A stretch of 37,069 nt of DNA, from positions 1-37,069 of the forward strand of contig JAQXSC010000109.1 of the NCBI GenBank assembly GCA_029218825.1, in the 5' to 3' direction. The translations under genes were made by a program, and so were the position numbers. Origin of the DNA: Oscillospiraceae bacterium (GTDB taxonomy: Bacteria; Bacillota; Clostridia; Oscillospirales; Acutalibacteraceae). Positions 9,434 to 14,543 of the stretch are shown here, piece by piece; the stretch's first letter is position 1; every line of letters begins with the position of its first letter. Under the pieces are notes generated by a model. The model was given only the letters and a program-made list of their open reading frames with translations. It did no database searches and had not been told where the DNA came from.

Positions 9434-9462
9434 TTGACATTATTAAAATGGTGTGATAAAAT
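9434..9462 (+). promoter_or_regulatory. Promoter of scfA
   Basis: -35 TTGACA (9434-9439), 17-nt spacer, -10 TAAAAT (9457-9462). The predicted start near 9469 gives a leader of about 25 nt with a strong AGGAGGTG ribosome site (9479-9486). Confidence 0.72.
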
Positions 9463-9493: not shown

Positions 9494-9646
9494 ATGAAAA
9501 GAATACAGACTATTGAAACTCGTGATTTAGAGAAAAGTACAATTTCAGGCGGCTGTGGTGAGTGCCAGACTTCTTGTCAGTCTGCTTGTAAAACATCATG
9601 CGGCGTTGCTAATCAGCAGTGTGAAAAGTGCTTGGAAGAGAAGTAA
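9494..9646 (+). CDS. scfA: SCIFF ranthipeptide precursor, variant
   Basis: A 50-residue precursor of the SCIFF family ('six cysteines in forty-five residues', TIGR03973), the substrate of the radical SAM maturase next door. A leader of about 20 residues ending in Gly-Gly precedes the Cys-rich core with CGECQTSCQSACKTSC. Cysteines are at 21, 24, 28, 32, 36, 43 and 46: seven, not six. The residue after C36 is Gly37 (codon GGC), where characterised SCIFF peptides have Thr37, the acceptor of the thioether from Cys32. ATG 9494 is fixed by AGGAGGTG (9479-9486). It has its own promoter and a hairpin before scfB. The family call is certain; the product structure is open. Confidence 0.95.
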   Translation: MKRIQTIETRDLEKSTISGGCGECQTSCQSACKTSCGVANQQCEKCLEEK

Positions 9647-9661
9647 AAATTTTAGGAAATC

Positions 9662-9699
9662 AGCCGTTTTTCGCCCAGGCGTTAAACGGCTTTCCTTTT
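9662..9699 (+). terminator. Hairpin between scfA and scfB (attenuator or terminator)
   Basis: AGCCGTTT (9662-9669) pairs with AAACGGCT (9684-9691), and CGCC (9672-9675) with GGCG (9678-9681), separated by a TT/TT internal loop. TTTCCTTTT follows. It is probably a partial terminator or a 3' stabiliser that lets the peptide mRNA outnumber the maturase mRNA. Confidence 0.7.
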
Positions 9700-9713
9700 A
9701 GTTGGAGATAAAT

Positions 9714-11084
9714 ATGGTTCATCAATATAAACTTAACGGATATAATATTGTTTTAGATGTATTCTCAGGTTCGGTTCATTCCGTAGATGAAGTTGCCTAC
9801 GATATTATATCTATGTATCAGAATAAAACTAAAGACGAAATATCAAAAGAAATAACCTCAAAATATGGAGGGGTTACAAAAACTGACGTAGAGGATTGCA
9901 TCAGCGATATAGAACAGTTAATTGCTGACGGCAAATTGTTTACAGAGGATAAATACGCAAATTTAGCCTTTGATTTTAAGAAAAACAACACAGTTATTAA
10001 GGCTTTGTGTTTACATATTGCTCACACCTGTAACCTTAACTGTGAATATTGCTTTGCAAGTCAAGGCAAGTATCACGGTGAACGTTCACTTATGACTTTT
10101 GAAGTAGGCAAGAGGGCAATCGATTTTCTGATTGAAAACAGCGGAACAAGGACAAATCTTGAGGTTGACTTTTTCGGCGGTGAACCTCTAATGAATTTTG
10201 ATGTAGTTAAGAAAATTGTTGAGTACGCTCGTTCAATAGAAAAAGAAAAGGGCAAAAACTTCAGGTTTACCCTCACAACTAACGGAGTGTTGGTTGATGA
10301 CGATGTTATCGATTTTGCCAACAAAGAGTGCCATAACGTTGTGCTTAGCCTTGACGGCAGAAAAGAAATCCACGATAATTTGAGAAAAACAGTAAACGGT
10401 CAGGGTAGTTACGATATAATTGTGCCTAAATTTCAGCATTTTGTTAAGCGCAGAGGTAACAAAAACTATTATGTTCGCGGAACATTTACCCATAATAATG
10501 TTGACTTTACTAATGATATTTTCCATATGGCTGACCTTGGTTTCACTGAATTATCAATGGAGCCTGTAGTGTGCGCACCGGATGACCCATATGCATTAAC
10601 ATATGACGATTTGCCGATTATATATGAGCAATATGAAATCTTGGCAAAGGAAATGCTTAAACGTGAAAAAGAGGGTAAACCTATTACTTTCTACCACTAT
10701 ATGATTGATTTAACAGGTGGCCCTTGTATTTACAAGCGTATATCCGGTTGCGGTTCAGGCACGGAGTATATGGCTGTAACTCCTTGGGGTGAGTTGTACC
10801 CTTGCCATCAATTTGTAGGTGACAGCAAATATTCTTTGGGTAATATTTATGAGGGTGTTACCAACAAAGAATTACAGGATAATTTTAAATTATGCAACGT
10901 TTATGCGAGACCTGACTGCAAGGATTGTTGGGCAAAACTATATTGCAGCGGTGGTTGTGCTGCTAACGCTTACCACGCAACAGGTTCGATTAACGGAATT
11001 TACGAATACGGCTGTAAGTTATTCAGAAAACGTATGGAATGTGCAATTATGATGAAGGTAGCAGAAAGTACAAATAAATTTTAA
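9714..11084 (+). CDS. scfB: SCIFF radical SAM/SPASM maturase
   Basis: A 456-residue SCIFF maturase (TIGR03974) that installs thioether links on the neighbouring precursor. The N-terminal 85 residues look like a PqqD-type peptide-recognition domain (FSGSVHSVDEVAYDII). The radical SAM core has CNLNCEYC with C106, C110 and C113, followed by FFGGEPL. The C-terminal SPASM domain binds auxiliary iron-sulfur clusters with Cys residues in GPCIYKRISGCGSG, LYPCHQF and CKDCWAKLYCSGGC. ATG 9714 is preferred to TTG 9702 because GGAGAT (9703-9708) precedes it. The maturase appears complete with no missing key residue, so the unusual core of its partner is not explained by a decayed cassette. Confidence 0.95.
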   Translation: MVHQYKLNGYNIVLDVFSGSVHSVDEVAYDIISMYQNKTKDEISKEITSKYGGVTKTDVEDCISDIEQLIADGKLFTEDKYANLAFDFKKNNTVIKALCLHIAHTCNLNCEYCFASQGKYHGERSLMTFEVGKRAIDFLIENSGTRTNLEVDFFGGEPLMNFDVVKKIVEYARSIEKEKGKNFRFTLTTNGVLVDDDVIDFANKECHNVVLSLDGRKEIHDNLRKTVNGQGSYDIIVPKFQHFVKRRGNKNYYVRGTFTHNNVDFTNDIFHMADLGFTELSMEPVVCAPDDPYALTYDDLPIIYEQYEILAKEMLKREKEGKPITFYHYMIDLTGGPCIYKRISGCGSGTEYMAVTPWGELYPCHQFVGDSKYSLGNIYEGVTNKELQDNFKLCNVYARPDCKDCWAKLYCSGGCAANAYHATGSINGIYEYGCKLFRKRMECAIMMKVAESTNKF

Positions 11085-13156: not shown

Positions 13157-13599
13157 CAGTCTTTGTAGATGCTGATGCCTGTCCTGCTGTTAGGATAGTT
13201 GAAGAAGTATCAAGGTCTTTTAATATCCCTGTAGTTTTGCTATGTGATACCAATCATATTCTAAACAGTGATTACAGCGAAGTAATTGTTATCGGTGCAG
13301 GTGCCGATGCTGTTGATTTAGCATTAATCAACAGATGTAACTCAAAGGATATTGTAGTGACGCAAGATTACGGAGTAGCCGCCTTGGCTTTAGGTAAAGG
13401 CGCATATTGTATTCATCAAAGCGGTAAAATTTTTACAAATGATAATATAGACGGACTTTTGATGGATAGACATTTAGCAAAGAAATCAAGGATGAGTAAA
13501 TCTAAACATCATCTGAAAGGGCCTAAAAAGAGGACTAAAGATGATGATGTTAGATTTGAAATTGCCTTTAGGAAATTAATAAGTGAGGTATTGTTATGA
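13153..13599 (+). CDS. YaiI/YqxD family protein (DUF188)
   Basis: A 148-residue cytoplasmic protein of the YaiI/YqxD (UPF0178, DUF188) family, which has a PIN-like fold; its activity is not established. The start TVFVDADACPAVRIVEE with early Asp residues is the hallmark. QDYGVAALAL lies in the middle, and the basic block HHLKGPKKRTKDDD comes near the end. ATG 13153 is chosen for the GGAGATAG site and the ATGA overlap with exoA; an upstream extension is unlikely. The stop overlaps the start of the dockerin-CAP gene by four bases. Confidence 0.9.
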   Translation: MTVFVDADACPAVRIVEEVSRSFNIPVVLLCDTNHILNSDYSEVIVIGAGADAVDLALINRCNSKDIVVTQDYGVAALALGKGAYCIHQSGKIFTNDNIDGLLMDRHLAKKSRMSKSKHHLKGPKKRTKDDDVRFEIAFRKLISEVLL

Positions 13600-14543
13600 A
13601 AAAGTATTTATCAATTATTTTGTGTATAGTAATTTTTATTTCAATCTGCACAATTTCAGCAAATGCACAAGATATTCCGACTTATTATTACGGTGATGCT
13701 AACAAAAACGGCGTTATAGATATTTTGGATGTTTCTGTTATTCAAAAGCACATAGTTAATGTTGCAGGTTATGATTTTGATGATATTCAAATGACAGTTT
13801 CCGACGTTGACGGTAACGGAGAAGTTAATATTGATGATGTTACATTAATTCAAAAATACCTATCTTATGAGTTATTAACTTTTCCAAATGTAGATCCGAC
13901 TAATCCTACAGAAACTAATGTAACTGTATCTACCGAACCTACAGAGCCTTTCGCTACCGACAATACTGTATCAACTGAACCATCGGAAACTGTATCTACT
14001 TTACCGACAGAAACTGTTACATCTTTGCCTATTTCAACTGAAAGCACCGAATCTACCACGGAATCTGCAACTGTAAAACCTACTAAACCGCCGATTCCCA
14101 CAGAGCCGTCAGAATATATTGATATAAATACTTACGTAGGAAACAAAATAAATGCTGCAAGAAGAAATGCGGGTTTAGGTTATTATAATGTGTCTGCCGC
14201 TTTGTCAAATTGTGCATACGGACGTGCTGTTGAAATTGTAAATAATGTTTCAAATACCCGTCCGGACGGCAGAAAGTGGTACACAATTCTAACTGATTAC
14301 TATGGACTTAATCCTGACAATTATTATCTGTCGGAGCATATGGTAGTCCTTGATACAAAAAACAATAATTATACTCAAGAAGAAATTGCCGGGATATGTG
14401 TAGATGCTTTGTTGAATTCAAAAAATGATAAAGCAATATTCTTAGAAGAAAAAGAAGAAGCAAAAGATAAACTGAAAAACCTAGGCGTAGGCGTTCACAG
14501 GGAAGGTAATATATACTATCTTGTTATTCACCTTGCCGGATAA
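13596..14543 (+). CDS. Secreted dockerin-CAP protein
   Basis: A 315-residue exported protein. It has a signal peptide (residues 1-24, ending SANA), a type I dockerin (about 33-90), a Thr/Ser/Pro/Glu linker (about 100-172) and a CAP/SCP domain (about 178-315). The two dockerin repeats have calcium-loop patterns GDANKNGVIDILD and SDVDGNGEVNIDD, so it should bind a cohesin on a scaffold. The CAP domain has NKINAARRNAGL and TRPDGRKWYTIL, but the usual His before TRPDG is Asn (SNTRPDG), so any activity relying on that His is doubtful. The dockerin is N-terminal, less common than C-terminal. It overlaps the DUF188 gene by four bases. Role: a cell-surface or cellulosome/amylosome-type accessory; substrate unknown. 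Confidence 0.87.
   Translation: MKKYLSIILCIVIFISICTISANAQDIPTYYYGDANKNGVIDILDVSVIQKHIVNVAGYDFDDIQMTVSDVDGNGEVNIDDVTLIQKYLSYELLTFPNVDPTNPTETNVTVSTEPTEPFATDNTVSTEPSETVSTLPTETVTSLPISTESTESTTESATVKPTKPPIPTEPSEYIDINTYVGNKINAARRNAGLGYYNVSAALSNCAYGRAVEIVNNVSNTRPDGRKWYTILTDYYGLNPDNYYLSEHMVVLDTKNNNYTQEEIAGICVDALLNSKNDKAIFLEEKEEAKDKLKNLGVGVHREGNIYYLVIHLAG

What the first reader, a model, noticed from the sequence alone, without database searches (positions are those of the whole stretch)
9494..9646. SCIFF precursor lacks the characterised thioether acceptor Thr37 and has a seventh cysteine
Seen: the core reads CKTSC-G-VANQQC, with codon GGC at residue 37, and cysteines at 21, 24, 28, 32, 36, 43 and 46. 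Known: in the studied SCIFF peptide CteA with its maturase CteB, one thioether joins Cys32 to Thr37, and the family is named for six cysteines. The spacing here aligns residue for residue (C32, C36, position 37). Inference: either the bond goes to another residue (Thr34, or Gly37 itself), or the peptide has a new crosslink pattern using Cys46. The maturase next door looks complete, so decay is unlikely.
Basis: partly seen in the sequence, partly recalled or inferred. Interest (0 to 1): 0.75.

Follow-up and report, generated by a model that had tools for sequence, protein, structure and literature searches.

The report
Glycine-37 form of SCIFF peptide
This small gut-bacterial peptide is an ordinary member of a widespread family; its missing threonine is normal for its branch, and that branch offers a natural test of which threonine the family's modifying enzyme really uses.

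Summary
In detail: window 9494-9646 (+) encodes a 50-residue SCIFF precursor with Gly37 (GGC, 9602-9604) and seven cysteines, followed by an intact maturase (9714-11084). Most of the surprise goes. Thr37 is not a settled acceptor: two reviews report that co-expression of CteA and CteB placed the thioether on Thr34, which is present here. Gly37 is the rule in this branch: a phylum-wide sample of 320 peptides has 273 Thr, 42 Gly, 4 Ser, 1 Ala. Thr34 is kept in 432 of 432 genome peptides; one Ser34 protein was seen elsewhere. Cys46 lies in the variable tail.

What is new: on the maturase tree Gly37 is one clade, yet it is scattered over organisms (14 of 164 families hold both Gly37 and Thr37 genera; RpoB), so peptide and maturase seem to travel together. 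Natural peptides lacking Cys32 never had Thr37; those lacking Cys36 always kept Cys32 and Thr37. On few independent events, this hints at two crosslink registers. Mass spectrometry would decide; none exists here.

The parts
9434..9462 (+). sigma-70-like promoter (TTGACA, 17 nt, TAAAAT)
   Evidence: 11 of 12 consensus matches, the best of 8 sites found; a consensus match only
9494..9646 (+). SCIFF precursor gene scfA, Gly37 form, 50 residues
   Evidence: translation; TIGR03973 79.5 bits; PF13165 78.9 bits
9587..9601 (+). CKTSC, residues 32-36: reported donor Cys32, reported acceptor Thr34, Cys36
   Evidence: sequence; bond assignment from reviews of CteA
9602..9604 (+). codon GGC of Gly37, where CteA has Thr37
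   Evidence: sequence; census
9629..9631 (+). codon of Cys46, the seventh cysteine, in the variable tail
   Evidence: sequence; 39 of 50 genus-mates read, 6 of 320 phylum-wide
9654..9696 (+). RNA hairpin between precursor and maturase genes, possibly limiting read-through
   Evidence: stretch 9644-9712 folds at -21.9 kcal/mol, z -3.31 against dinucleotide shuffles; no canonical terminator found
9714..11084 (+). SCIFF maturase scfB, radical SAM/SPASM with a PqqD-like N-terminal domain
   Evidence: TIGR03974 779.7 bits; Pfam domains (PqqD just below its cut-off); CteB 5wgg best solved relative; cysteines conserved

Best explanation
The locus is a normal ScfA-ScfB (SCIFF ranthipeptide) cassette of a Gly37 branch. 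The maturase's N-terminal recognition domain holds the leader (shown for CteB, inferred here). A SAM-derived radical takes a hydrogen from the gamma-carbon of Thr34, and a nearby cysteine, most likely Cys32 held at an auxiliary cluster, closes the thioether (reported for CteA/CteB, inferred here). Residue 37 takes no part, so Gly is tolerated. Cys46 is a lineage-specific tail cysteine, probably not crosslinked. Family membership is near certain; the confidence given is for the Thr34 bond with Cys32 as donor.
For: Reviews report Cys32-Thr34 (gamma-carbon) for CteA in co-expression. Thr34 and Cys32 are both present here. Thr34 is Thr in 432 of 432 genome peptides and 238 of 238 domains in 236 proteins, while position 37 is Gly, Ser or Ala in 47 of 320. 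Intact maturase of the TIGR03974 family. Gly37 and its maturase form one clade, so this is a settled, working state.
Against: Almost the whole block 28-35 is frozen, so Thr34 conservation is not specific to a crosslink. Peptides without Cys32 still keep Thr34, so Thr34 is conserved even where the reported donor is gone. Thr37 never varies in the 234 Thr37 rows' clade of the maturase tree, which speaks for a use of Thr37 there. One protein (P0239) has Ser34 and keeps Thr37. In vitro studies reported Thr37 for two SCIFFs.
Confidence: 0.55

Rival explanations
1. Register switch: in the Gly/Ser37 branch Cys36, not Cys32, is the donor to Thr34, whereas the Thr37 branch uses Cys32-Thr37. Each branch can then lose the other branch's partners.
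For: Cys32-less: 4 of 4 genome peptides and 90 of 90 protein domains have no Thr37, and 89 of those 90 domains keep Cys36. Cys36-less: 29 of 29 genomes keep Cys32 and Thr37. All 273 Thr37 peptides keep Cys32, and all 47 non-Thr37 peptides keep Cys36.
Against: Only about one loss of Cys32 and three of Cys36 on the maturase tree, so chance is not excluded. The protein set is enriched by its queries. Three domains of non-Thr37 proteins lack Cys36 (P0007, P0075, P0123). The reviews name Cys32 as the donor to Thr34 in a Thr37 peptide.
Confidence: 0.2
2. Cys46 forms an extra or replacement crosslink in the window's genus.
For: Cys46 in 39 of 50 genus-mates read and in 4 of 4 Ser32 genome peptides.
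Against: Absent in 11 of 20 mostly lower-ranked genus-mates, in 41 of 80 peptides of close relatives and in 53 of 89 Ser32 protein domains. It lies beyond the 43-position family model.
Confidence: 0.08
3. Gly37 itself is the acceptor through its alpha-carbon, which would be a sactipeptide-type bond.
For: Same spacing from Cys32 as the in vitro Cys32-Thr37 bond; Gly has only an alpha-carbon.
Against: The family's reported bonds are on beta or gamma carbons. Sister peptides have Ser or Ala there with no Cys32. Thr34 offers a reported acceptor.
Confidence: 0.05
4. The peptide is decaying or is left unmodified.
For: None found beyond the missing Thr37.
Against: The core is identical in all 30 genus-mates, and the maturase is intact.
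Confidence: 0.03

Closest known systems
CteA/CteB (thermocellin, Clostridium thermocellum) and Tte1186a/Tte1186
   Same: Same family and spacing; maturase alignable over its length with CteB (582.5 bits); Cys32, Thr34 and Cys36 shared by position with the published numbering.
   Different: Gly instead of Thr at 37 and an extra tail Cys46; the maturase lies in the Gly37 clade. I did not retrieve the CteA sequence itself; its residues are taken from the reviews.
Ser32/Ser37 SCIFF peptides (L193, L278, L280, L407)
   Same: Sister group on the maturase tree (61-row clade, support 99); Thr37 absent; Cys46 present in these four.
   Different: They lack Cys32, the reported donor.
Freyrasin PapA/PapB
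   Same: Ranthipeptide made by a related radical SAM/SPASM enzyme; the window's maturase scores 284.5 bits to the PapB model, below its cut-off of 340.
   Different: Six Cys-to-Asp beta-carbon links; the window's core has no Asp.

Membership tests
SCIFF precursor (TIGR03973) | score above the curated cut-off | tested here: met
   79.5 bits, cut-off 50
SCIFF precursor (TIGR03973) | six conserved cysteines in about 45 residues | tested here: met
   Cys 21, 24, 28, 32, 36, 43 present, plus Cys46
SCIFF precursor (TIGR03973) | encoded beside a TIGR03974 maturase | tested here: met
   maturase starts 67 bases after the stop codon; 779.7 bits, cut-off 425
SCIFF with Thr37 acceptor (as in CteA in vitro) | Thr at position 37 | tested here: not met
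   Gly37, GGC
SCIFF with Thr34 acceptor (as in CteA co-expression) | Cys32 and Thr34 present | tested here: met
ranthipeptide | thioether to a non-alpha carbon in the product | not testable with these tools
   needs mass spectrometry or NMR of the product
sactipeptide | thioether to an alpha-carbon | not testable with these tools
   needs mass spectrometry or NMR; the maturase scores far below the sactipeptide maturase models listed, e.g. RumMC 121.8 against 720

The most novel reading that the evidence does not exclude
SCIFF cassettes come in two types with different crosslink registers: Cys32-Thr37 in the Thr37 type, and a Thr34-centred bond (donor Cys36, or Cys32) in the Gly/Ser37 type to which the window belongs. 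The precursor-maturase pair is exchanged horizontally as a unit among Clostridia. This would reconcile the two conflicting assignments for CteA, because Thr37-type peptides carry both possible acceptors.
Probability: 0.22. Interest if true: 0.72.

Novelty: new variant of a known kind. Interest (0 to 1): 0.43.

Why it matters
Which threonine SCIFF maturases use is an open disagreement; one review says the discrepancy 'will need to be clarified' (PMC8326336, passage). The Gly37 branch is a natural T37G experiment and includes common gut bacteria (Ruminococcus bromii L035 and Faecalibacterium L086). One co-expression with tandem MS would tell whether Thr34 suffices. The natural Ser32 and Leu/Ile36 variants then test the donor in the same way.

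Tried and rejected
Gly37 as decay: rejected (intact maturase, conserved peptide). Gly37 as a single-genome oddity: rejected (120 of 120 listed nearest proteins). Cys46 as strict compensation for Ser32: it looked perfect in genomes (4 of 4) but holds in only 36 of 89 Ser32 protein domains. Ancient duplication instead of transfer: not excluded. Nearly every matching genome shows one match; five show two. In G163, G260 and G440 the two are neighbours in one frame; those of G208 and G226 were not followed, nor were two such genomes (G789, G806). Maturase positions diagnostic of the Gly37 branch (105, 287, 329, 409, 437) rest on one branch and cannot be tested statistically. First RpoB tree: three rows were evidently wrong-strand ORFs; discarded and redone. 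Hairpin check in relatives: a naming slip limited it to loci L100-L111, of which 11 of 12 gave a gap in the length range; all 11 fold better than mononucleotide shuffles (z below -2). One search was centred on a genome of the window's own class by mistake; the 30 loci read from it are all Thr37 with Cys36. Structure prediction was not used.

Full report
What is there. The window is contig C109 of a 1.75 Mb, 119-contig draft genome. At 9494-9646 it encodes a 50-residue peptide, MKRIQTIETRDLEKSTISGGCGECQTSCQSACKTSCGVANQQCEKCLEEK. It matches TIGR03973 (79.5 bits, cut-off 50) and PF13165, and is the only match in the genome. The maturase at 9714-11084 matches TIGR03974 at 779.7 bits; its best solved relative is CteB (5wgg). 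The nearest maturases in one-genome-per-species contigs are from an uncultured Clostridia bacterium (93%), uncultured Ruminococcus (84%) and Ruminococcus bromii (85%). Upstream lie a release-factor-3 gene and an Orn/Lys/Arg decarboxylase-like gene; downstream are a sigma factor, a YgjP-like protein, an exo/endonuclease-like protein and a dockerin protein. Among these six scanned neighbours I saw no transporter.

The premise about Thr37. Two open reviews (PMC8326336 and PMC8172795; passages read) say that in vitro work placed the single thioether of Tte1186a and CteA between Cys32 and Thr37, while co-expression of CteA with CteB placed it between Cys32 and Thr34, on the gamma-carbon. One calls the discrepancy unclear. 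The original papers I asked for are not held. Thr34 is present in the window's peptide, so the loss of Thr37 by itself forces no new chemistry.

How common Gly37 is. Genus: 131 of 161 genomes have a match; the 30 best-scoring ones that were read are all Gly37 with Cys46, and 20 further, mostly lower-ranked ones are all Gly37, 9 of 20 with Cys46. Close relatives by maturase (80 loci; one truncated row dropped, one tandem): 80 of 80 peptides Gly37, 39 with Cys46. Class sample: 335 of 393 genomes match; I read 208 of these loci, chosen to cover genera (192 of the 194 matching genera), giving 211 peptides: 169 Thr, 38 Gly, 3 Ser, 1 Ala. Phylum sample: 244 of 299 genomes match; I read 111 loci, chosen mainly by family (L374 held no SCIFF and was dropped), giving 110 peptides: 104 Thr, 5 Gly, 1 Ser. 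With repeated genomes removed, class and phylum give 320 peptides in 317 genomes: 273 Thr37, 42 Gly37, 4 Ser37, 1 Ala37. Position 34 is Thr in all 432 peptides (the window's included) and in 238 of 238 domains of 236 proteins; the one exception seen is P0239, with Ser34. The census depends on what TIGR03973 detects. Residues 28-31 and 33-35 are invariant in all four sets, so an invariant Thr34 fits an acceptor but does not prove one.

One clade of maturases, scattered over organisms. A FastTree of 295 maturases (277 of 318 class and phylum loci had one of 330 residues or more; 17 loci and the window were added) puts all 57 Gly37 rows in one clade (support 99) beside the 4 Ser37 rows (61 rows, 99). 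Position 37 changes twice on it. An IQ-TREE of 37 maturases agrees. The Ala37 peptide (L197) has no maturase in its flanks and is not placed. By group codes, 14 of 164 families hold both Gly37 and Thr37 genera. I then built an RpoB tree: 40 genomes asked for, 38 with rpoB (the window's own draft lacks it). Most were picked as opposite-state pairs from mixed families, so the count of 19 changes is raised by design. What matters is that 13 Gly/Thr pairs from the same family are sisters on it. Holding the five maturases of the window's family together is rejected (p-AU 1.1e-7), as is holding the 17 Gly37 genomes together on RpoB (p-AU 2.4e-26); both groups were named after the trees were seen. 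The simplest reading is horizontal exchange of the precursor-maturase pair; old duplication with many losses is the alternative. Neighbouring genes travel together anyway, so this does not prove that residue 37 and the maturase are matched in function. Five maturase positions mark the Gly37 branch (105, 287, 329, 409, 437). Residue 105 stands just before the first radical-SAM cysteine, and 409 lies between two SPASM cysteines.

Natural donor variants. Four genome peptides (L193, L278, L280, L407) have Ser32, so they lack the reported donor; all four have Ser37, Cys36 and Cys46. Their maturases are 453-455 residues long in the aligned part; the one scored gives 762.7 bits to TIGR03974. In the 236 proteins listed by two searches (the second was queried with such a peptide, which enriches the set) 90 of 238 domains lack Cys32 (89 Ser, 1 Arg). 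None of the 90 has Thr37, 89 keep Cys36, and 36 have Cys46. Conversely 29 genomes lack Cys36 (Leu or Ile) and all 29 keep Cys32 and Thr37 (five of them are also in the phylum sample). Exceptions to a clean split are P0123, which lacks both Cys32 and Cys36, and P0007 and P0075, non-Thr37 proteins with Ser36. On the tree these losses are one change (Cys32) and three (Cys36), so the reciprocal pattern is a hypothesis, not a result.

Mechanism and verdict. Shown: sequence, family membership, intact maturase, conservation, trees. Inferred: leader binding by the N-terminal domain as in CteB, hydrogen abstraction at Thr34, closure by Cys32 (or Cys36), no role for Gly37, probably none for Cys46. The peptide is an ordinary member of its branch. 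I found no description of a Gly37 type in the paper searches made (open-licence papers only, listings plus passages of six papers), but subscription papers on SCIFFs were not available. Its value is that it can settle an open assignment.

Noticed in passing
L193, L278, L280, L407; proteins: SCIFF peptides without Cys32 (Ser32, one Arg32) beside full-length maturases; Thr37 is always absent, Thr34 and nearly always Cys36 are kept.
   Followed up: partly
L354, L362, L403, L422, L430, L541-L550, L552-L570: SCIFF peptides with Leu or Ile instead of Cys36 in 29 genomes outside the window's class, all with Cys32 and Thr37.
   Followed up: partly
L102, L295, L297, L307; P0002, P0007, P0058, P0093: Tandem SCIFF units, complete or partial, in one reading frame. 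The maturases of L297 and L307, from different families, are close relatives on the maturase tree (G260 and G440).
   Followed up: no
L197 and L235: SCIFF genes of one genus (g84), one Ala37 and one Thr37, with no maturase found in the stretch held around them.
   Followed up: partly
window 9654-9696: Stable RNA hairpin between precursor and maturase; a better-than-shuffled fold also occurs in 11 of 11 relatives' gaps tested. It may set the precursor-to-maturase ratio.
   Followed up: partly
window 13596-14543: Protein with a dockerin type I domain and a long Thr/Pro/Glu-rich stretch.
   Followed up: no
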